From assembly GCF_024438035.1 (NCBI RefSeq), contig NZ_JANFQF010000010.1, positions 1 through 64,000 of the forward strand: DNA of 64,000 nucleotides. Reading direction: 5' to 3'. The notes below the pieces were generated by a model. It ran no database searches. It saw only the letters and a list, made by a program, of their open reading frames with translations, and had not been told where the DNA came from. This document shows, one piece after another, positions 3,247 through 42,839 of the stretch (position 1 is the first letter of the stretch; every line of letters begins with the position of its first letter). Source of the DNA: Rhodococcus tibetensis (GTDB taxonomy: Bacteria > Actinomycetota > Actinomycetes > Mycobacteriales > Mycobacteriaceae). Made by a program: the position numbers and the translations under genes.

Positions 3247-6200
3247 TTGGGGTCGGGATATGCAGCGGGTAGTAACGGTGCTCCTGTCGGAGCCTTTCCG
3301 CTGTCAGCTGCGCAGCGAGGGATCTGGTTCGCGCAACATGCGATGGGCGATGTTCCCCTCACCATCGCTCAGTACATCGAACTCCGCGGAGACATCGATC
3401 TCGACCTTCTGACCGAAGCCACCATCCGCTCCGGACGGGAATTCGGATCCGGCTTCCTTCGCCTCGTCGAGATCGAGGGTGTGCCGCACCAGTACGTCGA
3501 CAAGACGCTGGACGACGCCATCACATACATCGATTTCCGCGGTGAGGACAACTCCGTCGACGCAGCCCAGAAGTGGATGCGGAGCAACTACAGCGCACCC
3601 GTCGACCTTCTCGAAGACCGTCTCGTCGTCGTTTACTTGCTGCACGTCGGCGAGAACCACTACTTGTGGTTCTGCCGGATCCACCACATCGCCCTCGACG
3701 GGTTCGGCGCGATGGCGCTCATCGCGCGGATCGCGGAGATTTACACGGCGCTGGTCGAGTCCACCGAGCCGCCCGCCCCCCGCGCGGAAGATCTCGTCCG
3801 GATCGTCGAAGACGAACAGCGATACCGCAGCTCTGAGCGATTCGCGAAGGACCGGGAATACTGGGCCGAACGCACCGCGCACCTGCCGGAGTCGCCAAGC
3901 CTCGCCGGTCGCGCAGCGATGGTGGGCAGGTTTGCGAGGCTCTCCTCCGAGGCTCTGCCCGAATCGACCGCGACCTTGCTGGACGAGGCACTGGACGGGA
4001 CGAACGCCAGCTCCGCACCTGTCGTGGTTGCCGCCTTTGCCGCCTACCTCGCCCATATGACGGACCGCACGGACGTCGTCCTCAGCCTCCCCGTCTCCGC
4101 CCGTACCACGGCCACTCTGCGCCGCTCCGGCGGAATGGTGTCGAACATCGTTCCGCTCCGCCTCCAGATCACTCCGGAGATGACGGTTCCGGAGCTGGTC
4201 AAGAGTGTGCAGATCGAGCTGACCGGCGCTCTGCGCCGTCAGCGCTATCGCCACGAGGACATCCGCCGTGACGCCGGTGCACCCCAGGGGCAGCGCGGTT
4301 TCTTCGGCCCGTCGATCAACATCATGATGTTCCACAGCGAGATCAAACTGGGCACCGTCACCGGACATCAAAATGTCCTCACGACGGGGCCGGTGGAAGA
4401 CCTCTCGCTGAACATCTACCAAGGTGTCGCCGGCCACAAGATCCACATCGACTTCGAGGCCAACCCCAACCTCTACTCCGCGGATGAGCTGAACCGGCAC
4501 CACAGCCGATTCTTCGACTTCTTCGAGCGGTTCCTCCGGGCCGGCGACGACGCACCGGTGTCGGACCTTGCCCCGATGAGCGACGAGGAACGCGCGCAGG
4601 TGGTGTCGGGCTGGAACGGTGAGGTCGTCGCCCCGCAGGCCGGAACGATCGTCGACCTGTTCGACGCCCAGGTTGCGCGTACCCCCGATGCGGCGGCGCT
4701 GGTGTTCGAGGGTCAGGAGTTGACGTACCGCGAGTTCGACGCTCGCGTCAACCGTCTGGCCCGGCTGCTGATCACCAGGGGTGTGGGACCGGAGACGAAG
4801 GTCGCCCTCGCGATCCGCCGCTCCCTCGACTCCATGGTTGCGATGTACGCCGTGGTCAAGGCGGGCGCTGCCTATGTCCCGCTCGACCCCGATCATCCGG
4901 CCGAGCGCACCGCCTACGTCCTCGACAGCGCCAGACCCCGGTGCATCCTCACGGTGACCCGGGACCGGCTGACCTTTCCCGCCGGACACGACGTGGTGGA
5001 GATCGACGCACTCGACGTCGACAGCGTCGGGGCCGGCCCGATCCGGGACGACGAGCGACTGGCGGACCTTCGGGCCACCAACCCCGCCTACGTCATCTAC
5101 ACGTCCGGGTCCACCGGACGCCCGAAGGGTGTGGCGGTCGGCCACGGGTCCGTGCTGAACCAGGTCACGTGGATCGCCGAACGCTACCGCCTCGACTCCA
5201 ACGACGTCGTGCTGCAAAAAACCCCGACGACCTTCGACGTGTCGGTGTGGGAACTGTTCGCGCCACTCGTCTCGGGTTCACGCGTTGTGATCGCGGCCCC
5301 CGAGGGGCATCGCGATCCGGCATACCTTGCCGACCTCATCGCTCGTGAGAAGGTCACGGCCACCTCGTTCGTCCCGTCGATGCTCTCGGTATTCACGTCC
5401 GCTGCCGGCCGGGATCAACTCGTCAGTCTTCGGCTGGTTCTCGTTGCGGGAGAGTCCTTTCCGCCGGCGGTGGCGGCAGCGTTCCGGGCACGTTCGGACG
5501 CCGAGCTGCACAACCTGTACGGTCCTACCGAATTCACCGTGCATGCCACTGCCGGTGAAGTCGACCGCGAGGCCGCTCACACGGTGTCCATCGGAACTCC
5601 TGTGTGGAACACCGAGGCGTACGTGCTCGACGGTCACCTGCGCCCCACGCCCATCGGATCCGCAGGAGAGCTCTATCTCGCGGGGGCGCAGACCGCCCGC
5701 GGATACGAGGGCAGGCCCGATCTCACGGCAGAGCGCTTCGTGGCCAACCCCTTCGGGGCCCCGGGGTCTCGGCTGTACCGTACCGGAGACCTGGTCAGGT
5801 GGCGGGTAGACGGCAGTATCGAGTACCTCGGCCGCACCGATTTCCAGGTCAAGGTCCGAGGCCTGCGGATCGAGCTGGGGGAGATCGAGGCCGCGATGTC
5901 CTCGTATCCCCATGTGGCGCAATCCGTCGCCGTGGTATACGACAGCTCCCTGGGCCAGCGGTTGGTCGGTTACGTCGTCCCCGAGTCCGGCTCTGATGTG
6001 GATGTCGCAGCGTTGATCGACCACGTCGGCCGTGCCGTGCCGTCCTACATGGTTCCGGATGCCGTCATGGTGATCGCCGAGATGCCGGTCGGAGCGAGTG
6101 GAAAACTCGACCGCAAGGCCCTCCCCGAACCCGTGTTCGCGGCGGAAACGAGCGAATACATCGCTCCTCGCAGTGCCATGGAGGAGTCGATCGCAGGCCT

Positions 6201-9200
6201 GTTCGCCGAGGTCCTGGGTGTTCCGCGCATCAGCGTGGGCGACTCGTTCTTCGCGCTCGGCGGCGACAGTATCGTGTCGATCCAGCTGGTGTCCCGTGCC
6301 AAGGAAGCCGGTGTGCTCTTCACGGCCCGCGACGTCTTCGAGCGGAAGACCGTGGCGTCCCTCGCCGAAGTAGCCACGTCGGCATCCGATTCCGCGACGG
6401 TTCACGTTCTCGAGGAACTGCCGGGCGCCGGTATCGGCACGATGCCGCTGACACCGGTGGCGCACTGGATGACAGAGCTGGGCGGCGACTTCCACAGCTT
6501 CTCCCAGTCCATTCTCCTCACGCTTCCGCCGAAGGTCGAGAGGCAGCGGCTGGTTCGCACCCTTTCGGCTGTCGTCGATCGCCACGATGCTCTGCGTTCG
6601 GTGTTGCGCCGCAACGACTCTGCGGACGGATGGACGCTCCAGGTCTTGCCGATCGGCTCCGTCGACGTCGACAGGCTCGTCGACCGTGTCGAGTTCACGG
6701 AGGAGCCGGGCAGCGATTCCTTCGAGGCGCTCGCGGCACACGCCCTCGAGCGAACCGTCGACACCCTGGACCCCACTGCAGGGCGCGTGGTGCGGTTCGT
6801 CTGGTTCGCGCCGGCGGAGCTCGCCACCGACAGCGACGCCCCCGAGAGCGGCGGGAACGAGGGCGCCGACACCGAGACGCAGTCCGGTCGCCTGCTCGTC
6901 GTCATTCACCACCTCGCCGTGGACGGCGTGTCGTGGCGAGTGCTCGTGCCCGACTTCGCGGCCGCCTGGTCACAGATCGCGGCAGGGGTCGATCCTCTGC
7001 TTCCGGCCGTGGGTACCTCCGTCCGCCGCTGGGCACACGGATTGTCCGACAACGCGAGAAGCGCACGGAGGGTAGCGGAACTCGACTTCTGGCGCAGCAC
7101 GCTCGACGGTTCCGATCCGTTGATCGGTTCGCGGGCTCTCGACGGCCGCGACGTGGTGTCCACCACCGGACGGGTTCGGCTCGAGGTGTCGGCGGAGGTT
7201 ACCGACGGTTTGCTGACCCGCGTTCCGCGCGCGTTCCACGGTGGTGTCAACGACGGACTCCTCACGGCGCTCGCCCTGGCGGTTGCTGCATGGCGTGCGG
7301 AACGTGGCATCCCCGAGTCGTCGACTCTGGTGCACCTCGAGGGACACGGCCGTGAGGAGACGGTGCTTCCGGGAGCGGACCTGTCCCGGACCGTCGGCTG
7401 GTTCACCAGTATGTATCCCGTCCGCTTGGGAGCTCCCGAGGGCGGTCTCGCGGACGCGCTCGCCGGCGGCAAGGCCGCGGGCGCCGCGGTCAAGACGGTC
7501 AAGGAGCAGCTGGCGCAGGTGCCCGAACACGGCATCGGCTTCGGCCTGCTGCGCTACCTGAACGCCGAGACGCGGTCGATACTCGTCGATCTACCCAGCC
7601 CGCAGATCAGCTTCAACTACCTCGGCCGGGTCTCGGTGGGAGACATCCCTGCAGCCGTGCGTGCGGGGGGCTGGATGCCCGACACCGACACCATGGAACT
7701 CACCGGTACCCGCAACAGCGAGATGCCGGTGCACTTCGCGCTCGACATCAACGCGATGATCGTCGATGTCGAAGGGGAGCAACGGCTATCCGCCACTGTC
7801 GATTTCCCCCAAGGTGTGCTCACCACGGCCGAGGTGGAGGAGTTCACCGGGCTGTGGAAGCGCGCGCTCGAGGGTCTCGTCGAGCACACGCGGCGACCGG
7901 ACGCCGGCGGACGAACTCCCTCCGATCTCGATCTCGTACCCCTGAGCCAGCCCCGCATCGACGCGATCGAGAGCAGCTATCCCGCGCTCACCGACGTGTG
8001 GTCGCTGGCGCCTCTGCAGGTGGGCTTGCTGTTCCACGCCGCATTGGCGAGTAGCACGACCGACGTCTACACCACCCAGCTCGTCATGGACCTCGGTGGA
8101 TCGGTCGACGTCGATCGCCTGCGCCGCGCCGCGGAGGCTCTCGTCGCGCGCCACCCCAACCTGCGCACCGCCTTCGTCCTGGACGAGGACGGCATGGGGA
8201 TGCAGGTAGTCGTCGACGCGGTCAGCGTCCCCTGGACGCATGTCGACCTCCGGTCGCTGCCGGATGCCGACCGCCAGGCGAGAGTCGACGAGCTGATGCT
8301 CGCGAACCGGACGGACCGGTTCGACATGACGGCACCGCCTCTCGTGCGGTTCCTGCTCGTGGAGACCGCCGAGGGCCGTTACCGCTTCGCCGTCACCAAC
8401 CACCACATCCTGCTCGACGGGTGGTCGCTGCCCATCCTCATCCAGGACCTGCTGACCTTGTACGCGGTGGACGGCGACGCTCTGGCACTGCCGCAGCCTC
8501 GTCCGTACCGCAACTACCTCGAGTGGCTTTCCACCCAGGATCCGCAGCAGTCCGTGGCTGCGTGGACGCAGGCCCTCCACGGTGTCGAGGAGCCCACCCT
8601 CCTCGCGCCCGCGCACGAAGACACCGCCCCGACGCTCACCCCGGGCGAACTCGTCGTGGACCTGCCCGACGAGCTGCTCGCGGCGATGACCGAACGGTCG
8701 CGTGAGCTCGGCATCACCATGAACACCCTGGTCCAGGCTGCCTGGGGCATCGTCCTGGGCAGGCTGACCGGACGGGACGATGTGGTGTTCGGCACCACCG
8801 TCTCCGGCCGTCCGCCGCAGGTTCCCGGAATCGAATCCATGCTGGGCCTCTTCATCAACACCCTTCCCGTTCGGGTGCGGGTACAGGCCGGCGACTCCGT
8901 GCGGACCCTGCTCGAGCGGATTCAGCACGAGCAGACCGAACTTCTCGACCACCACCACATCGGACTGACCGACATCCAGCAGGGCCTGGGCCTGAGTGCG
9001 CTGTTCGACACGCTGATGGTCTACGAGTCCTACCCCCTCGATCGTGAGGCACTCACGCAGAGCAGCGACATCGAAGGGCTCCGCGTTCTCGACGTGACGT
9101 CCAACGACGCCACGCACTACCCGCTGGCCATCGTCGCGATGACGGACCCCCGCCTCCATCTGACCGCGAAGTTCCTGCCCGAGCTCTTCGACTCCGCCGA

Positions 9201-12200
9201 AGTGCGGGAGATCATGGCGCGGGTCGTCCGAGTCCTCGACGCGGTGTCCGGCGACGTCGACACACCCGTCGGCCGAATCGACATCCTGGACCGAACGGAA
9301 CGTACCTCGCTGCTCGCGGTTTCGGGTATCGAGGACGCCGAACAGCTGCTGTTGCCGGAGATCCTGTCCGCCTCGGCGGCCCTCGACCCCGAGCACGTCG
9401 CGGTCGTCGCCGACGGCACGACGTTGACGTACGCGGAACTGGACGAGCGGTCGAACCGGCTCGCACGCGTACTGATCGGGAGCGGTGTCGGACCGGAAAC
9501 GGCTGTGGCGCTGGGCATGACGCGTTCGCTGCACTCCGTGGTCGGCACGTGGGCGGTTGCGAAGACCGGGGCGGCGTTCGTGCCCGTCGATCCGCGGTAC
9601 CCGACCGAGCGGGTCGCGCACATGATCACCGACTCGGGGGCAATCCTCGGCCTGACCGTCGCGGCGCAGCGTGACACCCTTCCGCAGGACGTCGACTGGC
9701 TGGTTCTGGACTCCGCCGAATGCGACGCACTCGCCGCCGCGGAATCGTCGGAGGCCGTGACGGATCCGGAACGGACCTCATCGGTGCGAGCGCTGCATCC
9801 GGCGTACATGATCTACACCTCCGGCACCACCGGCCTGCCCAAGGGTGTCACCGTGACCCATGCGGGACTGGCCAACCTCTCCGCCGAGCAGCGCACCCAT
9901 TACGGGGTGACCTCGGCGGCACGTGTTCTGCACTTCGCCTCCCCGAGCTTCGACGCGTCCGTCCTCGAGTTGCTTCTCGCGTTCGGTTGCGGCGCAACCA
10001 TGGTGGTGGCTCCGGCGGACCTGTACGGCGGTGAGGAACTGCGCAGTTTCCTCGTGGAACACGAAGTGACGCATGCGTTCGTCACACCCGCGGCCCTGGC
10101 GTCGGTCGAACCGTCGGGGCTCAGCTGCCTCGGTGTCGTCGTGGTCGGCGGAGAGGCCTGCCCACCGGAACTGGTGGAACGCTGGGCACCCGGCCGCCGG
10201 ATGTACAACGGTTACGGTCCGACCGAGGCCACCGTGATGAGCAACGTCAGTAACGTTCTCGAGCCGGGCAAGCGGATAGAGATCGGCGGACCGGTCCGCG
10301 GCGTCACGGTGTACGTCCTCGACGGCCAGCTGCGTCCCGTCCCCCTCGGTGTGGACGGAGAGTTGTACATCGCCGGACCTGGGCTCGCTCGCGGATACCA
10401 CGACCGCTTCGGTCTCACCTCCGAGCGATTCGTCGCGAACCCGTTCGCCGAGGACGGTTCTCGAATGTATCGGACGGGTGACGTGGTCCGGCTCGTCGTC
10501 GACCGCGAACATCGTGCCGGGTACGGCGTCGAGTACGTCGGCCGCAGCGACTTCCAGGTGAAGGTCCGCGGATTCCGGATCGAACTCGGTGAGATCGACG
10601 CGGCCCTGGTTCAGCATCCCGCCCTCGAGTTCGCGACCACGGTGGGGCGCACCATGCCGTCGGGCGCGACAGCGCTCGTGTCCTATGTGCTGCCGTCGGC
10701 CGGGAACACGGTGGACGCCGCCGAGGTCACCCGATTCGTCTCCGACACACTGCCTGCGCACATGGTGCCCAGTGCTGTTCTGGTGCTCGACGAGATTCCG
10801 CTCACCACTGCGGGCAAGCTCGACCGCCGGGCACTGCCCGAGCCCGACTTCGACACCCGGCAGGGTGACGTCGTCGAACCCCGCACGGCGGCAGAGGAAT
10901 TGGTCGCCGGCGTTTTCTCCGAGGTACTCGGACTGACGACGATCAGTGTGGCCGAGTCGTTCTTCGACCTCGGTGGCAACTCGCTCCTCGCTACCAAGGC
11001 GGTGGCGCGGGTGAACGCGGCAGCAGGCACGCAATTGGGTGTGCGCGATCTCTTCGAGGCGCCGACCGTGGAACGGCTCGCCGTCAACGTGGCTGAGCAG
11101 GCCGGCACCGGCTCCGACCGCCCGGTCCTCGTCGCGGGACCGCGCCCCGCGCGCGTTCCGCTGTCGATGGCCCAGCAGAGCATGTGGCTGATGAACCGTT
11201 ACGACACGGCGTCGTCGGCCTACAACATCCCGCTGGCCGTCCGGTTGTCGGGCGACCTCGACATCGAGGCGATGTCCGCCGCTGTGGCGGATGTGCTTGA
11301 TCGGCACGAATCACTGCGCACCGTCTTCCCCGACTCCGCCGAGGGTCCCTACCAGGAAGTCGTCGACCGTGACCGCGTTGCGTTCGACCTGACACCGGTG
11401 CGTGTGCCGGAGCCCGAGTTGCACGCGGCGCTGACCGCATTCGCCACCGAAGGCTTCGACGTCACGGCGGCGCCGCCGCTGCGCATCCAGTTGTTCGCCA
11501 CCGGCGACACCGAGTTCCTCCTCGTCCTGGTGATCCACCACATCTGCGCAGACGGTGCCTCGTTGGCTCCGTTGGCGCGGGACGTGATGGTCGCCTACAG
11601 CGCACGGACAGCGGGTGCGGCTCCGCTCTGGCAGCCCTTGCCGGTGCAGTACGCCGACTTCGCACTGTGGCAGCGCGAAGTGCTCGGCGATCCCGTCGAC
11701 AGGAAGTCCCTCGCGGCCGAACAGATCGCCTACTGGGCGGACGCGCTGGCCGGAGTGCCGGAGCTTATCGATCTCCCTCGCGATCACGCGCGACCTTCAC
11801 GTCAGTCGATGATCGGTGATTCCGTCGACTTCGTGATTTCCCCAGACCTTCGCCGCGGGCTCGAGAAGCTGGGCAGAGACCACGGCGCGTCACTCTTCAT
11901 GGTGACCCACGCAGCGTTGACGACCTTGCTGTCACGGTTGAGTAACAGCGACGACATCACGGTCGGCACCCCCCATGCGGCGCGAACCGACCAGGTGCTC
12001 GACGATCTGGTGGGCATGTTCGTCAACACGCTCGTCCTGCGGACCCGGGTCGACGCCGGTGACTCCTTCGCCGCGCTGATCGAACAAATCCGCGAAAACG
12101 ACCTCGCGGCGTTCGGGCATTCCGACGTGCCGTTCGAGAAGCTGGTGGAAGCGCTGCAGATTCGCCGTTCCGCCTCCTATTCGCCGCTCTTCCAGGTGAT

Positions 12201-36200: not shown

Positions 36201-37107
36201 GGTGGGGACATCGCTGCGCCGGTGGATCGACGGCCTCCTCGACGCTGCCGCGAGTCCGGAACGGGTGGCCGAACTGGGCGTCTGGGAGCGGATGCTCACC
36301 GGCCCGGATCCCGTGCTGGGCTCTCGGGAACTCGACATTCGTTCCGACCTCGTCAACACACTGGAACGCACCCGGGTCGATGTTCCCGTGCTGGTCACGG
36401 AGGCCTTGCTCGGGACTGCTCCCGGCGCGCTCGACGCCGAGATCGGTGACGTGCTTGCCGCCGCCCTCGCGCTCGCGGTGGCCACCTGGCGGCGAGGCCG
36501 CGGTATCGACGAGCCGTCGGCGGTGATCACGCTCGAAGGCCACGGTCGTGAAGAATCCGTGGTCCCGGGGGCGGATCTGTCCCGGACGGTCGGCTGGTTC
36601 ACTACGATGTACCCGGCTCGACTCGACCTGGCCGGTGTCGACATCGCGGATGCCATGCAAGGTGGTCGCGCTGGTGTGGACGCCGTGGAGGCGGTCCGCG
36701 GTCAGCTGAAAACCATCCCGGACAAGGGAATCGGCTACGGTCTGCTTCGGTACCTCAACCCGGAGACTGCTGCAGTGATGAGCAGCTGGCCGGAGCCGCA
36801 GATCGTGTTCAACTACATCGGCCGTGTCAATGCTGCCGAGATTCCCGAGGCGGTGCAGGGCTTGGACTGGCTGCCCGATTTCGAAACCTCGGTGACGGGC
36901 GGACCGGTGAACAGTGAGATGCCCGCCCAAGCGGTGCTCGACATTCAGTCGGTGATCACCGACACGGACGCGGGCCGGCAGTTGACCGCGTTCATGTCGT
37001 TCCCACCGGGGATTCTGACGGCCTCCGAGGTGGACGACTTCGGACAGTGCTGGGTGGCGGCGCTGTCCGGGTTGGTCTCGCAGGCTCGGAAGCGAGCAGG
37101 ACGCTGA
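3247..37107 (+). CDS. Giant nine-module nonribosomal peptide synthetase (11,286 aa)
   Basis: A single uninterrupted gene encodes a nine-module synthetase that builds a nonapeptide on phosphopantetheinylated carrier domains in the cytosol. Domain order is C-A-T-E, then six C-A-T modules, then C-A-T-E and C-A-T-E. The carrier domains of the E-containing modules (1, 8, 9) read LGGDSI and the other six read LGGNSL. The condensation domains after E (modules 2 and 9) have the DCL-type HHILLDGWS core; modules 3-8 have the LCL type. These match known family rules and support the assignment. The start is TTG 3247: an in-frame TAA lies at 3241, GGAG at 3237-3240 is a good ribosome site, and no other start precedes the first conserved motif. 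There is no thioesterase or reductase; the protein ends 3 nt before a stop within an E domain. MbtH and phosphopantetheinyl transferase genes are not in the window. The product is unknown. Confidence 0.97.
3295..7920 (+). other. NRPS module 1: starter C - A1 - PCP - E
   Basis: The condensation domain (about aa 17-438) has HHIALDG at aa 146. Its C-terminal half resembles the EntF starter domain ([28 protein letters not shown]), so it should join an acyl or aryl starter to residue 1. A1 spans about aa 469-962; by alignment to the PheA pocket positions I read the ten-residue code DVWSLALVHK, which is closest to small polar (Ser-type) codes but not a clean match. The carrier serine is aa 1008 (LGGDS). 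The E domain (about aa 1057-1558) has [11 protein letters not shown] at aa 1221, LEGHGRE and VGWFT motifs, so residue 1 should be D-configured. Confidence 0.85.
7921..11124 (+). other. NRPS module 2: DCL - A2 - PCP
   Basis: The condensation domain has HHILLDGWS at aa 1719, typical of domains that accept a D-residue donor, which fits its place after E1. A2 (about aa 2034-2532) has a standard [10 protein letters not shown] motif. The pocket code read by hand is DALFVGGVMK, which suggests an aliphatic hydrophobic residue. The carrier serine is aa 2579 (LGGNS). A2 shares its framing and pocket with A4, and is related to A6 and A8. Confidence 0.82.
11125..14695 (+). other. NRPS module 3: LCL - partial A remnant - A3 - PCP
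   Basis: The condensation domain carries HHICADG at aa 2764. Before the real adenylation domain lies an extra segment resembling the first 70 residues of an A domain (aa 3097-3168), then a linker of about 50 residues. The complete A3 follows (about aa 3220-3727). Its A3 motif is [12 protein letters not shown], with Pro where the family normally has Gly. The code read is DLKNVGSDVK, which I cannot assign; Lys239 and Asp330 in the pocket suggest a polar or charged substrate. The carrier serine is aa 3771. Confidence 0.8.
12535..12750 (+). repeat. Vestigial A-domain N-terminus inside NRPS module 3
   Basis: Residues 3097-3168 repeat the opening of an adenylation domain (a leucine-rich helix, [10 protein letters not shown], then [10 protein letters not shown]) but stop before the LKAGxAYVPID (A2) motif. 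A second, complete adenylation N-terminus begins about 50 residues later. The frame stays open throughout, so this is translated. The same arrangement occurs in module 5. It looks like a scar of adenylation-domain exchange that has been retained, possibly for a structural reason. Confidence 0.75.
14696..17880 (+). other. NRPS module 4: LCL - A4 - PCP
   Basis: The condensation domain has HHIASDG at aa 3956. A4 reads DALFVGGIMK, differing from A2 at one position (Ile for Val), so modules 2 and 4 should install the same aliphatic residue. Local sequence around the pocket ([12 protein letters not shown]) is also shared with A2. The carrier serine is aa 4833 (LGGNS). Confidence 0.82.
17881..21420 (+). 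other. NRPS module 5: LCL - partial A remnant - A5 - PCP
   Basis: The condensation domain has HHISADG at aa 5022. As in module 3, a partial A-domain start (about nt 19330-19530) precedes the complete A5. A5 has the same Pro-ended A3 motif ([12 protein letters not shown]) and the code DLKNAGSDIK, nearly identical to A3. Modules 3 and 5 should therefore add the same unusual or polar residue. The carrier serine is aa 6011. Confidence 0.8.
19330..19530 (+). repeat. Vestigial A-domain N-terminus inside NRPS module 5
   Basis: This is the second copy of the partial adenylation opening: a leucine-rich helix, [12 protein letters not shown], then [10 protein letters not shown] and [13 protein letters not shown]. 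It ends before the A2 motif and is followed by a linker of about 45 residues and a full A domain. It has diverged considerably from the module 3 copy, so the arrangement is not a recent one. Confidence 0.75.
21421..24600 (+). other. NRPS module 6: LCL - A6 - PCP (possible aromatic residue)
   Basis: The condensation domain has HHIAADG at aa 6197. A6 belongs to the same sequence group as A2, A4 and A8 but its pocket reads DTGVVGAVIK. Gly239 opens the pocket floor, and the V-G-A-V stretch resembles tryptophan codes such as DVALVGAVCK (from memory). I infer a bulky aromatic substrate, which makes A6 the best candidate for the 4-amino- or 4-nitrophenylalanine suggested by the pap operon. This is inference. 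The carrier serine is aa 7069. Confidence 0.75.
24601..27780 (+). other. NRPS module 7: LCL - A7 - PCP
   Basis: The condensation domain has HHVSTDG at aa 7255. A7 groups with A1 and A9 in its framing (VVSRWNDT opening). The code read is DLWHLILVSK, which resembles serine codes of the DVWHxSLxDK type but departs at two positions, so serine is a weak prediction. The carrier serine is aa 8131 (LGGNS). Confidence 0.8.
27781..32475 (+). other. NRPS module 8: LCL - A8 - PCP - E
   Basis: The condensation domain has HHISADG at aa 8317. A8 reads DAFFSALIWK, which I cannot match to a known specificity; aromatic pocket residues suggest a hydrophobic substrate. The carrier is LGGDS (serine aa 9204), the type that precedes epimerisation. 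The E domain has [11 protein letters not shown] at aa 9399 plus LEGHGRE and VGWFT motifs, so residue 8 should be D. Confidence 0.82.
32476..37104 (+). other. NRPS module 9: DCL - A9 - PCP - terminal E
   Basis: The condensation domain is DCL type (HHILLDGWS, aa 9903). A9 reads DAWQFGLINK, one residue from the glutamine code DAWQFGLIDK known from tyrocidine synthetase, so glutamine is the best-supported prediction in this protein. The carrier serine is aa 10761 (LGGDS). The closing E domain has [11 protein letters not shown] at aa 10952: the usual Gly after Asp is Ser. LEGHGRE and VGWFT are intact. The protein ends directly after this E domain. Confidence 0.82.
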
Positions 37108-37111
37108 GCAT

Positions 37112-37150
37112 CGTCCGGGCGGTGGGAGTTGTTCTCCCACCGCCCGGACG
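37112..37150 (+). terminator. Strong hairpin terminator after the NRPS gene
   Basis: A perfect inverted repeat with 17-bp arms (37112-37128 and 37134-37150) and a 5-nt loop begins 4 nt after the NRPS stop codon. The stem is GC-rich. No T-tract follows, as is common for actinobacterial terminators. It should end the NRPS transcript and separate it from the glycosyltransferase gene. Confidence 0.85.
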
Positions 37151-37432
37151 GGCACGGTCGGCACTCAGGTGTGGGCGCCGGCCGGGCCTAACGGGGCACC
37201 GGACAGTCAGCTTCGAAAGTTTCCGGAAAGAATCGAAGATTTCATTTTCTCTTCATCGAAAACCTGAAGTTCATTACTTCGGCGGAAAACCCATCTTCGG
37301 TACCGCGCCGCCTATATTGATCGATCGACTCCAGGTCGGGGGGATTTTGGGTGAACCGAAGGTATTCTTGAACAATTGTCCAGTCAATTCTCCCGGCGCG
37401 CGGATGTGTGCCACCTTTGCTATTACTGAGGC
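37151..37432 (+). other. AT-richer leader region upstream of the glycosyltransferase
   Basis: This spacer is clearly richer in A+T than the flanking genes, especially 37205-37300. It presumably holds the glycosyltransferase promoter, since the hairpin isolates that gene from the NRPS. A TTGAAC sequence lies at about 37368, but no convincing -10 partner was found. The glycosyltransferase has only a weak, very close GAGG ribosome site, so its translation may be low or leader-dependent. Confidence 0.5.
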
Positions 37433-38317
37433 ATGTCGAATGCAACTCTGTCTCTGGTGATCCCGGCGTACAACGAGGAAGCGACAATTCAGGCGTGTCT
37501 GGACAGGATATTCGAGCAGATCGATGACATCGACGAGGTCATCGTGGTCGACAACAACTCGACCGATGGCACGGCCGCGATTGTCGCTGCAGCGCAACGC
37601 CGGGAACCCAAGGTGCGGCTCGTCAAGGAAGCGGAACAGGGCTGCGCGCCCGCGCGTAGCGCGGGCATGAATTCCGCGACGGGCGATATCGTGGCGAGAA
37701 TTGATGTCGACACGAAGATCAACGAGAATTGGGCCGCAAATATCAAGTCATTCTTTTCACGGCACAGCGACAGATATGCCGCGGCGACCGGAACCTGCAC
37801 CTGCTATGACCTCCCTTTTCAAGGGCTGTTCGCGTCGTTGCAGCGAAAGATGAATTCGAAAAACCAGGCCAAGCTCGAACGGGGTGAGTCGATTGCCGCT
37901 GCAGGACTCTTCGGTTCGAATATGGCGATTCTCAAGACGGCGTGGGAGGACTGCCAGTCCGCGTTGCACGACGACCAAGACGTCCACGAAGACACCGATC
38001 TGTCGTTGACCCTGCAGAACGAGGGATTGTCCTGTGCGATGGTGCCCGGGATGCAAGCGAGCATCTCCGGTCGTCGGTACCTGTCGCCGATCCGCAGCTA
38101 CTGGCGTTACGTGCTGCGCGGTCCTCGCACCCTGGCACTGCACGGCAAGCGTCTGTCTGCAGCGATCGGGACGTTTGCCGTTGCCGCGACCGCAATGCCG
38201 TTCTATCTCCTCATGTGGGTGCCGTTCCGCGCTTGGGATCCCGAGCGGGAGTCATTCTCGCTGGGCCGCCTTTTCTTCGGAGCAGATCAACGTCCGCAGC
38301 CACGCGCGCACGTGTGA
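37433..38317 (+). CDS. Family 2 glycosyltransferase
   Basis: The 294-residue protein opens with the GT2 nucleotide-sugar fold (SLVIPAYNEEATI, then VVDNNSTDGT) and has a DVD metal-binding motif at about residue 87 (ARIDVDTK). A hydrophobic segment near the C-terminus (about residues 240-262) suggests membrane association. GT2 enzymes transfer sugar from a nucleotide donor to lipid, peptide or polysaccharide acceptors; the acceptor here is unknown. ATG 37433 is chosen because the fold starts immediately and an in-frame stop lies just upstream. It lies between the NRPS and the pap operon and is convergent with the latter (4-nt gap). That position suggests, but does not prove, glycosylation of the peptide. 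Its GC content appears lower than that of the NRPS, which hints at a different origin. Confidence 0.85.
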   Translation: MSNATLSLVIPAYNEEATIQACLDRIFEQIDDIDEVIVVDNNSTDGTAAIVAAAQRREPKVRLVKEAEQGCAPARSAGMNSATGDIVARIDVDTKINENWAANIKSFFSRHSDRYAAATGTCTCYDLPFQGLFASLQRKMNSKNQAKLERGESIAAAGLFGSNMAILKTAWEDCQSALHDDQDVHEDTDLSLTLQNEGLSCAMVPGMQASISGRRYLSPIRSYWRYVLRGPRTLALHGKRLSAAIGTFAVAATAMPFYLLMWVPFRAWDPERESFSLGRLFFGADQRPQPRAHV

Positions 38318-38321
38318 GGCG

Positions 38322-39281
38322 TTACGCCCAATCGAACGACATCTCGCCCGCGACGCCGAGGTGCGTGCACAGTTTGTGAATACCGCCGAAGTCTTGCACC
38401 AGAGCAGAACGGCCTGTGTCGTGTTCGGCATCGTCGACCATCGCCTGCCCGCCGTCGAGGCCGATCAGCTCGACGACGGCGTGCCAGGTCGAGTAGTCGT
38501 TGCTACTGAAGGCGGTCATCGCATCGACGAGCCCGTCCAGGAGGTGCCGCCGGTCGTCGGCCCCGAGCTTGTCGTAGACGACGCCCGCGATCTCGTCGGC
38601 GATGGAGGCGTGGCAGTACTCGTCGCGATTGTGCAGTCGCACCGTGGCCCGATTGACCGGTTGGATCGCCTCGTTCTCGGAAATGAGGTCGAGGTACGAG
38701 CTGATGGAGATCTCGGCGACCGTCATGAAGGCGAACGTGGTGATCGCCCGCTTCCGAGGGTCGGCGGCCTCTCCGGTGGCGGTGCGCTGGCGCCGCAACG
38801 TCAGCACGTCCGGCAGGGCATTGTTCGGCATACTCCAGCCCCGCCGTCTGCGCGTGACCGCACTCGCGTTCAGGTGCATCAGTGTGTGGTACTGCTCGTC
38901 GACCATGGCCTCGTGCACGGCGACCGCGAATGTGTCACCGATACCGGTATCGAGAGCGTCGTGGGCCACGAGATCGAAGCCCGGATTCACCACGTACTGC
39001 TCGATGTCCATGACGTTCTTGTTGAACGCGACCCAGCCCCACGCCCGCACTCGATTCTGCTGATCTTCACTCGCGTGAAGGAAGCAGTCGTGGTCGGCGA
39101 ACGGCAGCAATTCGTCGGGGTAGTCCCGCTTGTCGAGGTCGAACAGGGCGTCGAGATCCGGTTCCGGCTTCTTCACGGTCGCTCGCTGCCCCCAGTTGCG
39201 GGCGAGCCGGGCAACCACGGCGCTTTCGACCGGGTCGTTCGGATCGTGTTCCGGCAGAGTGTGGGTGTTCTCGGTCGTCAT
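38322..39281 (-). CDS. AurF/CmlI/ObaC-type diiron arylamine N-oxygenase
   Basis: This 319-residue protein is predicted to oxidise an aromatic amine (ArNH2) through hydroxylamine and nitroso stages towards nitro, using a non-heme diiron centre. All seven AurF iron ligands appear in register: Glu94, Glu129, His132, Glu190, His217, Glu221 and His224, in the two ExnDExxH-like motifs (VDEQYH and RDEYCH). The 35- and 27-residue spacings equal those I recall for AurF (E101/E136 and E196/H223). I chose ATG 39281, which overlaps the papC stop as ATGA and has a GGAG upstream, over an in-frame extension to 39350. As the last gene of the papB-papA-papC operon, its likely substrate is 4-aminophenylalanine, 4-aminophenylpyruvate or a carrier-bound form. 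How far the oxidation goes cannot be told from sequence. Confidence 0.9.
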   Translation of the reverse strand: MTTENTHTLPEHDPNDPVESAVVARLARNWGQRATVKKPEPDLDALFDLDKRDYPDELLPFADHDCFLHASEDQQNRVRAWGWVAFNKNVMDIEQYVVNPGFDLVAHDALDTGIGDTFAVAVHEAMVDEQYHTLMHLNASAVTRRRRGWSMPNNALPDVLTLRRQRTATGEAADPRKRAITTFAFMTVAEISISSYLDLISENEAIQPVNRATVRLHNRDEYCHASIADEIAGVVYDKLGADDRRHLLDGLVDAMTAFSSNDYSTWHAVVELIGLDGGQAMVDDAEHDTGRSALVQDFGGIHKLCTHLGVAGEMSFDWA

Positions 39282-40210
39282 GAGGATTCTCCGTTCCCGT
39301 CCCAGGACCGGGGCGCGGTGTGGTGAAGGTCGGTGAAAAGCGCGGCGCACCTGCGGGCGAGGGACTCGCGCCGGTCCCCGAGTGCCGAGATCGACCGGGA
39401 CATCAGGTCGGCGAAGTCCTCGTCGGTGCCGTTCTCGACGGTGTCGTCGAGGATGCCCATCGCATCGGCGAGCGCGCGGCGGGCCTCGACGGCGAACGGA
39501 TTGCCGACCTGGATGTCCCGGTACACCTCGGGTACCCCGCCACCGACGCGCGCAAGGAGAGCGAGGGACAGCAGGTGCGGTGGGGTTGCCATCGCTGTCA
39601 GCTCGGAACCGTCGACACCCAGCTTGCCGAGCGCCAGTCCGAACGCGAGCACACTGGCGTGGGTGAGTGCCTGGGTAATCGCCGTGAGCCGATCATGTCG
39701 CTCGGCACCCAGGTGTACGACCGACGCACCCCACCCGGACAGTGACGTCAGGAACCAGCCGAGGTCACCCCGGTCCTGATAGGTCACCGCCGCGATCGGC
39801 CTGCCCTGCGGCGAGAGCGAAGGGGCGAACATCGGGTTGATCCCGAGTGCACTGTTGCGGAGCGGGTGCGCACGCAGAGCGGCGTCGAAACGGCACTTCA
39901 CCGACAGGGTGTCGATCAGCAGCGCGTGCTCGGCCAACGACTCGGTCAGGAACGTCAGAGCGTTCAGCGCCACGGATTCCGGCACCGCCAGCACCACCGC
40001 GTCAGCCGACTGCACGAGCGCACGCACCTCGGGTGACGGGTCGGTGATGTCGCCCCGCACGGCGTCGACGCTCGCCACTTCCGGAACTCGGACGTCGACA
40101 GTCCGGACACGCATTCCGTCGCCCCGGAGCCAAACGGACAGCATCCGGCCGACATCACCGCGGCCGCCGATCAGTGCGACGGTCCGGGATGATGTCGCCG
40201 GAAAGTTCAT
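39278..40210 (-). CDS. papC: PapC: 4-amino-4-deoxyprephenate dehydrogenase (prephenate dehydrogenase family)
   Basis: The 310-residue protein has an N-terminal NAD(P)-binding site (ALIGGRGDVGRML, about residues 12-24) and the TyrA-family substrate region (LGINPMFAPSLSPQG). In a pap operon it would oxidatively decarboxylate 4-amino-4-deoxyprephenate to 4-aminophenylpyruvate. Ordinary prephenate dehydrogenase activity for tyrosine synthesis is the alternative. The tight ATGA overlaps with papA upstream and the N-oxygenase downstream, together with the aminodeoxychorismate synthase, make the PapC role much more likely. No aminotransferase is in the operon, so a housekeeping aromatic aminotransferase would have to make 4-aminophenylalanine. 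Confidence 0.87.
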   Translation of the reverse strand: MNFPATSSRTVALIGGRGDVGRMLSVWLRGDGMRVRTVDVRVPEVASVDAVRGDITDPSPEVRALVQSADAVVLAVPESVALNALTFLTESLAEHALLIDTLSVKCRFDAALRAHPLRNSALGINPMFAPSLSPQGRPIAAVTYQDRGDLGWFLTSLSGWGASVVHLGAERHDRLTAITQALTHASVLAFGLALGKLGVDGSELTAMATPPHLLSLALLARVGGGVPEVYRDIQVGNPFAVEARRALADAMGILDDTVENGTDEDFADLMSRSISALGDRRESLARRCAALFTDLHHTAPRSWDGNGESS

Positions 40211-42279
40211 GGTCCGATTTCGTTCGGGGTATCCGCGGTGACGGACAGTGCACGCACCATTGTGGCAGCCTTGACCATGGCCTCGTCGAATTCTTCCTCA
40301 GGATCGGACAGTGCCGTGATGGCACCGCCGATCCCGAAAGTCACCTCGCTCTCGGAGGCGACGATCGTGCGAATGACGATCGACAAGTCGGCGGTACCGG
40401 TCAGTGAGAAGTACCCGATCGCTCCCGAGTAGACACCGCGCGGCCCCGACTCGAGCCGGTCGATGATTTCCATCGTCCGGATCTTGGGCGCGCCGGTCAT
40501 GGATCCGCCCGGGAAGGCGGCGCGGACGCACGCGATCACCGACGCGTCGGCGCTGAGAGTCCCGCGGACCGTGGACACCAGTTGGTGTACGGCTGCGTAC
40601 GTCTCCACGTCGAAGAGCTTGGGAACGTGCACCGACCCGGGAACACAGACCCGGGCCAGGTCGTTGCGCGTCAGATCTACGATCATCAGGTTCTCGGCGC
40701 GGTCCTTCTCGCTGTCGAGCAGGTCCTGGCGCAGCACCGCATCCTTGGCGGGGGTGGCTCCACGCGGCCGCGTTCCCTTGATGGGTTTCGACTCCACCAC
40801 GCGGTCGGGGCCGATCCGCAAAAAGCGCTCAGGTGACGCGCTGAGGACCGACAGGCCCGCGAACTGGAGATACGCGCTGTACGGGGTGGGGCTGATGGTG
40901 CGGAGCAGCTCGAAGGTGTGCAGCGGGTCGATCGTCTGGTCGACGGTCGCCATGTTGGTCAGACACACCTCGTAAGACTCACCCGTCCGAATCTCGGCGA
41001 GCGAGGACGCGATGTGCTCGAGATACCGATCGTGGTCGTGGCGCAGGGCGAGCTGCGTCGATTCGGGTTTCCTGATGGGAGGCACTGCCGACGCCGGCTG
41101 GTCCGGCTCGGCCAGCCGGCGCAGCCCAGCCTCCATCTCGTCGAGCCACCGGTGCATCTCGGGGTCGTCCTGGTGATCGCTGAGACACAGCGCATACGTG
41201 CGTTCGTTCGAATGGTCGATGACGACGGCTCGGTCCGCGAATACGAGGGCGGCATCCGGGGTCGGCGACCGGTGCACGGCGGCACCACCCGTCTGCGCCT
41301 TCAGCTCGTAACCCAGATAGCCGACGTAGCCCAGCCCGAATGGCACTCCGGGGAGACCGGGAACCGACCTGGCCGCCAGTTGGCGTTCGAGGTAGTCGAA
41401 GAACGGGGCGTGGACCTGTTCCACGGGGAGCCCTTCGCGCGTGATGCGCACGAGCGATTCGCCGACGTCGTAGGTGATGTACTCGGCTCTGGGCCCGGAG
41501 CAGTTGCCCATGATCGTGAAGCGGGAAGTCGATTCCGATGCCGACGTGCCGTCGAGCCAGAACGCATTCGGACCCGAGGAGAACAGATCCTCGAAGGTGG
41601 TACGGGGGTCGACCTCGTGGTCGATGCGGACCTGCGCAATGACGTACGGCGCGTGCGGCACGGGGATCTTCAGCATCGACCCGGAAGCCGGCGTGCCCGA
41701 ATGCGTCGGGGTGAGGTCGCGGAAGTTCGCGAGCAGCTCGTGTCCGAACGCCGTACTGATCGACTCGGGGTGGAACTGGACACCCCACAGGGGCCGGTTC
41801 CGGTGACGCACGCCCATCAGCAAACCGTCGGTCGTCCAGGCTGTTGCTTCGAGGTCGTCGGGCAGGTCCCGCGCGATCAGCGAGTGATATCGCACGGTGG
41901 GGAAGGGTGACGGGATGCCTTCGAAGAGTTCGCTGCCGTGGTGTTCGACGAGCGACACGCGCCCGTGCATCGGCTCCGGCGCGAGTACGACCTGTCCGCC
42001 GAACAGTTGGCACAGCCCCTGATGGCCGAGGCACACGCCCAGTACTGGCAAGTCGGTCTCGGCAATGATCCGAGCACTGATACCGAAATCACGAGGTCGC
42101 TCGGGGCGGCCGGGACCGGGGGAGATGACGATGTTGTCGAACTCGGACCACGGAACGGAGTCCCAGTCGACATCATTGTGCACGACAGTCGGGGGTTCCC
42201 CGTTCACCTCGGCGAGCAAGGTGAAGAGGTTGTAGGTGAAGGAGTCGTAATTGTCGACGAGCAGCGTTCGCGTACTCAT
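40207..42279 (-). CDS. papA: PapA: fused 4-amino-4-deoxychorismate synthase (PabA-PabB)
   Basis: This 690-residue enzyme joins a glutamine amidotransferase domain (residues 1-190; triad Cys83 in GVCLGHQ, His170 and Glu172 in FHPES) to a chorismate-binding component I domain. It should convert chorismate and glutamine to 4-amino-4-deoxychorismate. The PIKGTRPRG motif has Lys where anthranilate synthases have Ala (PIAGT), which favours aminodeoxychorismate synthase. GGSMTGAPK and EEEFDEAMVKA motifs near the C-terminus are intact. No aminodeoxychorismate lyase is nearby, so the product is unlikely to go to folate here; the mutase and dehydrogenase in the operon point to 4-aminophenylalanine. Fused PabAB proteins are typical of chloramphenicol, pristinamycin and similar loci. 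Confidence 0.93.
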   Translation of the reverse strand: MSTRTLLVDNYDSFTYNLFTLLAEVNGEPPTVVHNDVDWDSVPWSEFDNIVISPGPGRPERPRDFGISARIIAETDLPVLGVCLGHQGLCQLFGGQVVLAPEPMHGRVSLVEHHGSELFEGIPSPFPTVRYHSLIARDLPDDLEATAWTTDGLLMGVRHRNRPLWGVQFHPESISTAFGHELLANFRDLTPTHSGTPASGSMLKIPVPHAPYVIAQVRIDHEVDPRTTFEDLFSSGPNAFWLDGTSASESTSRFTIMGNCSGPRAEYITYDVGESLVRITREGLPVEQVHAPFFDYLERQLAARSVPGLPGVPFGLGYVGYLGYELKAQTGGAAVHRSPTPDAALVFADRAVVIDHSNERTYALCLSDHQDDPEMHRWLDEMEAGLRRLAEPDQPASAVPPIRKPESTQLALRHDHDRYLEHIASSLAEIRTGESYEVCLTNMATVDQTIDPLHTFELLRTISPTPYSAYLQFAGLSVLSASPERFLRIGPDRVVESKPIKGTRPRGATPAKDAVLRQDLLDSEKDRAENLMIVDLTRNDLARVCVPGSVHVPKLFDVETYAAVHQLVSTVRGTLSADASVIACVRAAFPGGSMTGAPKIRTMEIIDRLESGPRGVYSGAIGYFSLTGTADLSIVIRTIVASESEVTFGIGGAITALSDPEEEFDEAMVKAATMVRALSVTADTPNEIGP

Positions 42280-42695
42280 GACGACTCGGCATTCGTCGGG
42301 GGAAGGGGATGGTGGTGGCCGTTGTGCCCACTGCCGTCGGCGCTGCTCGCGCCCGTCCCGCCGTTGATGACCAATTCTTCGAGCCTGCAGGTCTCGGCGA
42401 TGAGGAGGTCGTAGAGCGCGTCGAAGAACGCGGGAGACAGGGAGTGGCTGTCGGCATAGCGGCGAGCGCGTTCGTGCACCAAATCGATCCGGTGCGGTTG
42501 CATCATCGCGATGTCGGAGCGGCGCTTGAGTTCACCGATACGCCGGCACACCTCGAGCCGCTGACCCACGGTCTCGAGCAGAGTTGCGTCGACGGCATCA
42601 AGTTCCGCGCGCAAACCTTCGAGTGCCTGGTGCGCCGAGGCGTCAGGGGCCTTTCCGGAATCATCGCTCTTCCCCTCTTCTACGGAGAAATACAT
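42276..42695 (-). CDS. papB: PapB: 4-amino-4-deoxychorismate mutase (AroQ chorismate-mutase fold)
   Basis: The 139-residue protein is a small all-helical AroQ-type mutase: LRAELDAVDATLLETVGQR, then RRIGELKRR and QPHRIDLVHERAR, covering the usual Arg/Lys substrate contacts, followed by a C-terminal helix with ETCRLEE. In the operon it would rearrange 4-amino-4-deoxychorismate to 4-amino-4-deoxyprephenate. A plain chorismate mutase is the alternative. It is the first gene of papB-papA-papC-N-oxygenase, each joined by an ATGA overlap, so the four proteins should be made together. I chose ATG 42695, with a GGGG ribosome-site-like stretch a few nt upstream. GTG 42710 is an in-frame alternative without a visible site. 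The tail is rich in Gly, Ser and His and lies outside the fold. Confidence 0.87.
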   Translation of the reverse strand: MYFSVEEGKSDDSGKAPDASAHQALEGLRAELDAVDATLLETVGQRLEVCRRIGELKRRSDIAMMQPHRIDLVHERARRYADSHSLSPAFFDALYDLLIAETCRLEELVINGGTGASSADGSGHNGHHHPLPPTNAESS

Positions 42696-42839
42696 AGTCG
42701 CCCCAGTCACTCGATCGGCAGTAGCTTTCTCATCCCGACTATCGTGTGTCAGTGGTGGTTCGTTTCTCCGCGCCTCCCGGACTGCCGAGAAGGCGAATTT
42801 CGGGTTTGCGGATGCGAACCGGTGGTGATCACCCCCATA

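What the first reader, a model, noticed from the sequence alone, without database searches (positions are those of the whole stretch)
3247..42710. Candidate undescribed locus for a peptide with a 4-amino- or 4-nitrophenylalanine-type residue
A nine-module NRPS lies next to a coupled papB-papA-papC-N-oxygenase operon. The pap trio is the known route from chorismate to 4-aminophenylalanine (chloramphenicol, pristinamycin, obafluorin). The fourth protein keeps all seven AurF iron ligands. Arylamine oxidation by such enzymes gives nitro groups in aureothin, chloramphenicol and obafluorin. I know of no described giant actinobacterial NRPS product made this way, but I cannot search.
Basis: partly seen in the sequence, partly recalled or inferred. 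Interest (0 to 1): 0.88.

Follow-up and report, generated by a model that had tools for sequence, protein, structure and literature searches.

The report
Nitrophenylalanine operon beside giant peptide synthetases
A Rhodococcus genome carries a four-gene operon matching the chloramphenicol pathway's enzymes for making 4-aminophenylalanine and oxidising it; related bacteria keep these genes beside giant peptide synthetases, often one that looks like the synthetase of the antibiotic humimycin, so the natural peptide would likely contain a nitro- or amino-phenylalanine unit.

Summary
Window 3247-37107 encodes one 11,286-aa, nine-module NRPS. At 38322-42710 lies a papB-papA-papC-N-oxygenase operon whose three junctions are 4-base overlaps. 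Its proteins match a chloramphenicol cluster by family, identity (43-57%) and diagnostic residues: PIKGT in PapA, Asn for His in PapC, seven iron ligands in the oxygenase. The oxygenase is closer to CmlI than to AurF. The interpretation needs correcting. The oxygenase occurs in 27 of 28 genomes of the genus, this nine-module NRPS in only 12. In sampled members of five other genera the pap genes mostly sit beside a seven-module synthetase of IupU (humimycin) type or a six-module relative. In this genome the seven-module type lies on another contig beside rbpA. The R. equi version is in print as 'chorismate mutase / anthranilate synthase / prephenate dehydrogenase / hypothetical', coregulated with virulence genes; its first two genes are needed for full growth in macrophages. 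These data make it a likely nitroaromatic operon. No CmlA was found in 28 genomes of the genus, which speaks against a standard chloramphenicol/corynecin route, although corynecins are reported from Rhodococcus. Best reading: the operon supplies 4-amino- or 4-nitrophenylalanine to NRPSs, the humimycin type most likely. Loading module and product are unproven.

The parts
3247..37107 (+). nine-module NRPS, 11,286 aa from a TTG start; A-domain codes DVWSLALVHK, DALFVGGVMK, DLKNVGSDVK, DALFVGGIMK, DLKNAGSDIK, DTGVVGAVIK, DLWHLILVSK, DAFFSALIWK, DAWQFGLINK
   Evidence: ortholog in 12 of 28 genomes of the genus
35587..37104 (+). C-terminal epimerisation-type domain (motifs [27 protein letters not shown]); no thioesterase or reductase follows
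   Evidence: the meaning of the motifs is recalled
37433..38317 (+). family-2 glycosyltransferase, 294 aa; not present at this spot in all relatives
   Evidence: PF00535; homologue in 11 of 80 named loci
38322..39281 (-). CmlI/AurF-type diiron arylamine N-oxygenase, about 319 aa (open frame to 39350)
   Evidence: PF11583; 5hyg 276 bits, 3chh 165 bits; ligands E117 E152 H155 E213 H240 E244 H247 in the numbering of the 342-aa ORF
39278..40210 (-). [quoted passage not shown] Asn in place of the TyrA His (NPMF for HPMF)
40207..42279 (-). PapA, fused glutaminase + 4-amino-4-deoxychorismate synthase (predicted; PIKGT at 499-503)
   Evidence: 8hx6 818 bits against 215 bits for the best anthranilate synthase; 57% to the chloramphenicol-cluster PapA
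42276..42710 (-). [quoted passage not shown] AroQ type); likely start near 42695
   Evidence: PF01817; TIGR01803 CM-like 87.6 bits, cut-off 73.35; 48% to the chloramphenicol-cluster PapB
42916..43866 (+). lipase-like alpha/beta hydrolase with a signal-like N-terminus, beside papB; role unknown
   Evidence: homologue in 32 of 80 named loci

Best explanation
Window 38322-42710 is a papB-papA-papC-cmlI-type operon that is predicted to turn chorismate into 4-aminophenylalanine and likely to oxidise its aryl amine toward a nitro group, as a likely building block for giant peptide synthetases. The first three enzymes would give 4-aminophenylpyruvate, and a host aminotransferase would finish the amino acid (inferred). 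The oxygenase would act on the free amino acid or on the bound peptide (inferred). The most likely consumer, by conserved gene neighbourhood, is the humimycin-type (IupU-type) seven-module NRPS, which in this genome lies on another contig beside rbpA. The nine-module NRPS next door is a second, clade-specific candidate.
For: Enzyme identity: PapA scores 818 bits to a solved 4-amino-4-deoxychorismate synthase against 215 to the best anthranilate synthase. It has PIKGT, as have 46 of 47 PapA copies in the named loci, while this genome's own TrpE-like paralogue has PIAGT. PapC has Asn at the TyrA His position in 61 of 61 copies and so has the chloramphenicol-cluster PapC. The seven ligands are intact in 79 of 80 oxygenases; the other is cut short. 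All four proteins have homologues inside one chloramphenicol cluster that also holds cmlA, cmlP, an acyl ligase and cmlS. Coupling: 4-base overlaps. Link to NRPSs: a giant NRPS near the operon genes in 18 of 21 loci. Among the 69 AurF-bearing genomes sampled outside the genus, AurF lies within 35 kb of a humimycin-type C-terminus (six-module relatives included) in 27, and PapA does in 49 of the 65 that have a listed PapA, across five genera (the NRPS listing was truncated, so these are lower bounds). In four Rhodococcoides genomes read, papB-papA sits between rbpA and a humimycin-type NRPS, apart from papC-aurF. Three species without an NRPS on the side of the operon that was read keep a humimycin-type NRPS elsewhere, shown to be beside rbpA in the two that were fetched. 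Chemistry: p-nitrophenyl corynecins are reported from Rhodococcus sp. H-CA8f (passages).
Against: No A domain of the window NRPS resembles the CmlP pocket code DASMECAVCK, with its Glu at position 299. The hydrophobic DALF-type codes of these NRPSs also occur in 4 of 4 six-module relatives from genomes in which no PapA was listed, so they do not mark the unusual residue. In this genome the operon is not beside the humimycin-type NRPS. Rhodococcoides separates papBA from papC-aurF. In 42 of 69 AurF-bearing genomes outside the genus AurF is not within 35 kb of a listed humimycin-type C-terminus. 3 of the 21 loci show no NRPS near the operon. No enzyme activity or product was tested.
Confidence: 0.6

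Rival explanations
1. One reading: the residue goes into the nine-module peptide made by the neighbouring NRPS at 3247-37107.
For: The nine-module NRPS (terminal part at least 64% identical) is beside the operon in 12 of 12 genomes that have it.
Against: 16 of 28 genomes of the genus have no match above 52% to its terminal part although 27 of 28 keep the oxygenase; G007, G015 and G025 keep the operon with no NRPS on the side read; none of its nine pocket codes has the Gln/Glu331 or Asp/Glu299 seen in the candidate modules.
Confidence: 0.3
2. Corynecin route: the operon makes the p-nitrophenylserinol core of corynecins (chloramphenicol analogues), a small molecule rather than a peptide residue.
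For: Corynecins are reported from Rhodococcus sp. H-CA8f; five R. erythropolis strains give 100% antiSMASH similarity to that cluster, and another paper maps a 'corynecin III' region of about 108 kb in such a strain, long enough for the multi-NRPS pap locus (passages). The pap-CmlI operon is the obvious source of a p-nitrophenyl ring.
Against: A CmlA (beta-hydroxylase) query has no match in 28 of 28 genomes of the genus nor in 8 of 8 further family genomes, with the control genome ringing. The window NRPS has nine modules, no reductase family in its last 1,286 aa and no CmlP-like code. Similarity to the corynecin entry is a weak guide: it is also listed at 0.17-0.22 for beta-lactone regions in other genomes.
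Confidence: 0.2
3. Published reading for the R. equi operon: redundant chorismate mutase, anthranilate synthase and prephenate dehydrogenase that boost ordinary aromatic amino acid supply.
For: Deletion mutants of the first two genes grow poorly in macrophages and are restored by complementation, and these genes are coregulated with virulence genes (PMC2947987).
Against: The P. equi PapA scores 831 bits to an ADC synthase against 207 to the best anthranilate synthase and has PIKGT; its PapC lacks the TyrA His; the 'hypothetical protein' is a CmlI-type oxygenase (293 bits to 5hyg; ligands intact). The paper itself reports normal growth in broth and other copies of these enzymes.
Confidence: 0.05
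4. The operon makes 4-aminobenzoate or 4-nitrobenzoate, as in aureothin-type pathways.
For: Streptomyces loci in the set pair an AurF homologue and a PapA homologue with no PapB or PapC match in the stretch held.
Against: Here papB and papC are present and overlap their neighbours; the oxygenase is CmlI-like and has Gln319 where AurF has Arg302, recalled as a substrate-carboxylate contact.
Confidence: 0.05

Closest known systems
Chloramphenicol pathway (papABC, cmlI), reference cluster in the Streptomyces pseudovenezuelae genome (L238-L239)
   Same: All four operon proteins are homologues (PapA 57, PapC 49, PapB 48, CmlI 43% identity), with the same PIKGT and NPMF motifs; the cluster's identity is confirmed by CmlA_N and CmlS_C domains and an A-T-reductase protein
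   Different: No CmlA found in 28 genomes of the genus; here a nine-module NRPS in place of the single-module CmlP; gene order differs
Rhodococcus (Prescottella) equi REQ23860-REQ23830 operon with IupU (REQ23810)
   Same: Same four genes in the same order; published as CM, AS, prephenate dehydrogenase and hypothetical protein; in P. equi DSM 20307 an 8,902-aa seven-module NRPS follows the oxygenase
   Different: Partner NRPS there is the seven-module IupU-type; here a nine-module NRPS, with the seven-module type elsewhere
Humimycin (IupU) NRPS
   Same: This genome's contig C31 encodes an NRPS 64.6% identical to the P. equi one over about 8,900 aa, with a similar order of A-domain codes and a thioesterase-like end
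   Different: The window NRPS has nine modules, ends in an epimerisation-type domain, and aligns only in part at 43-49%; synthetic humimycins were made from predicted residues, with an acyl group but no further modification (PMC5550956, passage)
Corynecin cluster (MIBiG BGC0002284)
   Same: Rhodococcus NRPS cluster tied to p-nitrophenyl compounds (passages; accession)
   Different: Its gene content could not be read here; CmlA was not found in this genus

Membership tests
PapABC 4-aminophenylalanine pathway | PapA: fused glutaminase and ADC synthase with PIKGT | tested here: met
PapABC 4-aminophenylalanine pathway | PapB: AroQ-type mutase of the CM-like subfamily | tested here: met
PapABC 4-aminophenylalanine pathway | PapC: TyrA-like with Asn for the TyrA His, as in the chloramphenicol PapC | tested here: met
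PapABC 4-aminophenylalanine pathway | Makes 4-aminophenylpyruvate from chorismate | not testable with these tools
   needs an enzyme assay
CmlI/AurF arylamine N-oxygenase | PF11583 with seven iron ligands | tested here: met
CmlI/AurF arylamine N-oxygenase | Oxidises an aryl amine to a nitro group | not testable with these tools
   needs an enzyme assay
Chloramphenicol/corynecin-type cluster | CmlA-type beta-hydroxylase | tested here: not met
   0 of 28 genomes in the genus; control genome positive
Chloramphenicol/corynecin-type cluster | CmlP-type A-T-reductase NRPS with a 4-aminophenylalanine pocket | tested here: not met
   window NRPS: no reductase family in its last 1,286 aa, no matching code; other NRPSs of the genome were not scanned for reductase domains
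Humimycin (IupU) NRPS | Seven modules ending in a thioesterase with the IupU code order | tested here: not met
   window NRPS fails; the C31 NRPS of this genome has seven A domains in a similar order and a thioesterase-like tail

The most novel reading that the evidence does not exclude
The conserved 'chorismate mutase / anthranilate synthase' locus of rhodococci, including the R. equi copy that is coregulated with virulence genes and needed for growth in macrophages, is a nitroaromatic amino acid operon. It feeds the humimycin-type synthetase IupU, so true humimycins carry 4-nitro- or 4-aminophenylalanine, most likely at the last module, whose pocket has Gln331 (DA[FY]FxxGIQ, or DAFTDVGVQ with Asp299 where CmlP has Glu299). 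The synthetic humimycins then lack a key residue, and the macrophage phenotype comes from a natural product rather than from aromatic amino acid starvation.
Probability: 0.35. Interest if true: 0.85.

Novelty: new variant of a known kind. Interest (0 to 1): 0.68.

Why it matters
If true, it re-reads a published, virulence-linked gene set as a natural-product pathway. It predicts that the humimycins, which were made by chemical synthesis of predicted sequences, have an unrecognised building block in their natural form. It offers a source for p-nitrophenyl chemistry in a genus where no CmlA was found. Each point can be tested with gene removals and mass spectrometry in laboratory rhodococci.

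Tried and rejected
Pocket codes as proof of the loading module: DALF-type codes looked promising but also occur in 4 of 4 six-module relatives from genomes with no PapA listed, so they were dropped. Gln331 at the last module is a lead only: 33 of 37 AurF-bearing and 0 of 3 AurF-lacking genomes among the 40 that I picked. Two of those three AurF-lacking genomes (G086, G102) do have a weaker PapA match (51-52% identity). The four AurF-bearing exceptions belong to genus g27; two further g27 genomes, read in full, have six modules with Met331 at the last and Glu331 at module 3. The pattern may simply follow ancestry.

Streptomyces loci as a source of a 4-aminophenylalanine pocket: the four adenylating domains found there lacked Asp235 and look like acyl ligases; a true chloramphenicol cluster was then found. 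The Pfam family CmlA_N rang nowhere, controls included, so it was replaced by a CmlA protein query with a positive control. A regex count of A domains missed some and was superseded by a profile search. The Tyr-type reading of DALFVGAVVK rests on a recalled code and is not used. Structure prediction was not run, because motifs and solved relatives answered the question.

Literature: no paper in the held library combined Rhodococcus, 4-aminophenylalanine and nonribosomal or Rhodococcus and 4-amino-L-phenylalanine. None of the five papers found for R. equi, chorismate mutase, anthranilate synthase, aminophenylalanine and humimycin (at least three terms) held both R. equi and aminophenylalanine by its term counts (listing). 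Three papers held Rhodococcus, N-oxygenase, nonribosomal and nitro (listing only; one of them on lydiamycin in R. fascians, unread). Passages only were seen of 14 papers, and of PMC2947987 passages plus section 27 whole. The key corynecin paper (Undabarrena 2021) is not held.
Full report
WHAT IS THERE. The window lies on contig C10 of a 5.81-Mb genome. One frame, 3247-37107 (+), runs for 11,286 codons. It holds nine A and nine T motifs, starts with a condensation-type region and ends in an epimerisation-type domain with no thioesterase found. A glycosyltransferase follows (37433-38317). Convergent to it, on the minus strand, lie PapB, PapA, PapC and a CmlI/AurF-type oxygenase, each overlapping the next by 4 bases.

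WHY THE OPERON IS A 4-AMINOPHENYLALANINE PLUS N-OXYGENASE SET. PapA's best solved relative is a 4-amino-4-deoxychorismate synthase (8hx6, 818 bits); the best anthranilate synthase gives 215 bits. PapA has PIKGT in 46 of 47 copies in the 80 named loci; L087 is the exception, and 33 of the 80 loci gave no PapA match in the stretch held. The genome's own TrpE-like paralogue has PIAGT. That PIKGT and PIAGT separate these enzymes is recalled. PapC has Asn where solved TyrA enzymes have the His of HPMF, in 61 of 61 copies. The oxygenase keeps seven ligand residues in 79 of 80 copies (L124 is cut short); which residues are the ligands of AurF is recalled. A chloramphenicol cluster was located in S. 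pseudovenezuelae by a 96% CmlI match and read: papB, papC, papA, cmlA, cmlP, cmlI, an acyl ligase and cmlS, confirmed by the Pfam domains CmlA_N and CmlS_C and by a carrier-plus-reductase region in CmlP. The window proteins are 57 (PapA), 49 (PapC), 48 (PapB) and 43% (CmlI) identical to it, and it shares PIKGT and NPMF. The window oxygenase is CmlI-like: 276 bits to 5hyg, 165 to AurF. The PDB calls 5hyg 'uncharacterized'; its identity as CmlI rests on recall and on the 96% match inside that cluster.

DISTRIBUTION. The oxygenase (E up to 1e-30) is in 27 of 28 genomes of the genus and in 96 of 301 of the family, 7 of 31 genera. PapA (E up to 1e-180) is in 112 of 301, so some genomes have PapA without the oxygenase. 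In genus g6 (Rhodococcoides, fascians group) 36 of 37 genomes have a PapA at E below 1e-200; of the 26 AurF-bearing ones in the family sample only 3 have it within 5 kb of the oxygenase.

WHICH NRPS. Twenty-one loci, chosen by me to span the hits, were joined and read over 40-60 kb, mainly on the side where an NRPS was expected (about 8 kb on the other side). Eighteen have a giant NRPS within about 7 kb of the operon genes (in the three Rhodococcoides loci, of papC-aurF); G007, G015 and G025 show none. The neighbour differs by lineage: the nine-module type in the opacus/jostii/window clade; several large NRPSs in the erythropolis and fascians groups; a seven-module type in Prescottella (G065, G180, G189) and in two other genera, G048 and G042, where G042 has it split over two genes; and a six-module relative in G154 and G225. 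The nine-module terminal region (at least 64% identity) is in 12 of 28 genomes of the genus, beside the oxygenase in 12 of 12; the other 16 reach at most 52%.

THE HUMIMYCIN LINK. By published locus tags the R. equi genes are REQ23860-REQ23830 and IupU is REQ23810; that this NRPS is IupU follows from tag order and is an inference. IupU is the NRPS from whose sequence humimycin A was predicted and synthesised, with an acyl group but no further modification (PMC5550956, passages). This genome has a 64.6% identical full-length NRPS on contig C31 beside rbpA (RbpA confirmed by PF13397). The same rbpA-NRPS pair is present in G005, G015 and G025. In four Rhodococcoides genomes read, rbpA-papB-papA lies directly beside a humimycin-type NRPS (three full-length, one cut by the contig end). 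Among the 69 AurF-bearing genomes sampled outside the own genus, AurF was within 35 kb of the humimycin-type C-terminus in 27 (14 of 14 g10, 6 of 6 g22, 1 of 2 g16, 6 of 17 g27, 0 of 26 g6, 0 of 4 g9). PapA was within 35 kb in 49 of the 65 that had a listed PapA (23 of 26 g6, 13 of 13 g10, 6 of 6 g22, 1 of 2 g16, 6 of 15 g27, 0 of 3 g9). The g27 cases are C-termini at 51-53% identity; G154 and G225, read in full, are six-module NRPSs. The NRPS places came from a truncated listing, so the misses are upper bounds. G051 (g25) has PapA, no AurF, and an NRPS C-terminus 27 kb away that is not adjacent; I left it out of the 65. PapA-bearing genomes without AurF were otherwise not placed.

LOADING MODULE. 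None of the nine window codes resembles CmlP's DASMECAVCK. DALF-type codes are not diagnostic. In the humimycin-type NRPSs the last module has Gln331 in 33 of 37 AurF-bearing genomes read and in 0 of 3 AurF-lacking ones. The erythropolis group shows DAFTDVGVQK with Asp299, where CmlP has Glu299. This is a lead, confounded by ancestry.

CORYNECINS. Reviews and genome papers state that corynecins, N-acyl p-nitrophenylserinols, were linked to an NRPS cluster in Rhodococcus sp. H-CA8f, and that R. erythropolis genomes carry that cluster (passages). The primary paper could not be read. A CmlA query has no match in 28 of 28 genomes of the genus nor in eight further family genomes, while the control genome rings. 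If corynecins come from this locus, another beta-hydroxylation route is needed.

PUBLISHED RE-READING. The R. equi paper (PMC2947987; section 27 read whole, other passages) explains the macrophage defect of the first two gene knockouts by diminished aromatic amino acid synthesis, while noting redundant enzymes and normal growth in broth. The P. equi proteins are PF11583, prephenate-dehydrogenase-like (one hit just below its cut-off), chorismate-binding plus GATase, and CM_2; PapA scores 831 bits to the ADC synthase against 207 to the best anthranilate synthase; the 'hypothetical protein' scores 293 bits to 5hyg. A nitroaromatic product is the simpler reading (inference).

VERDICT. The link to a peptide is likely. 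The specific nine-module assignment is weaker than the humimycin-type one. The product remains unknown.

Noticed in passing
G000 contig C12:85262-86194 (L208 15239-16255, minus): A second CmlI/AurF-type oxygenase, 61% identical to CmlI, in a run of genes with a KamA-like radical SAM aminomutase, a sulfolactate/malate-dehydrogenase-like enzyme and a DgcA-like racemase (all below the curated cut-offs), plus aminotransferase-like and MFS-like genes by eye; the PapA query found no match on that contig. It may be a separate N-oxidised metabolite cluster.
   Followed up: partly
G000 contigs C31, C19, C25: Three paralogous seven-module NRPSs of about 8,900 aa with a humimycin-like layout (C31 is IupU-like; C19 and C25 are 57-58% identical to the P. 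equi one).
   Followed up: partly
window 35587-37104: The nine-module NRPS ends in an epimerisation-type domain with no thioesterase found, as do its orthologs in four other genomes read (G005, G006, G010, G026); the release step is unexplained.
   Followed up: no
L088, L090, L103, L058: In these species the pap/oxygenase genes lie next to what looks like the S10 ribosomal-protein operon (rpsC-like, rplB-like and rplC-like genes, by eye), unlike in the window.
   Followed up: no
window 42916-43866: A lipase-like hydrolase with a signal-like N-terminus beside papB has a homologue in 32 of 80 named loci, on the other side of the oxygenase in Rhodococcoides; possible release or self-protection role, untested.
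   Followed up: no
G051 (g25), contig C13: Carries PapA but no AurF homologue at E 1e-30, so it might use unoxidised 4-aminophenylalanine.
   Followed up: no
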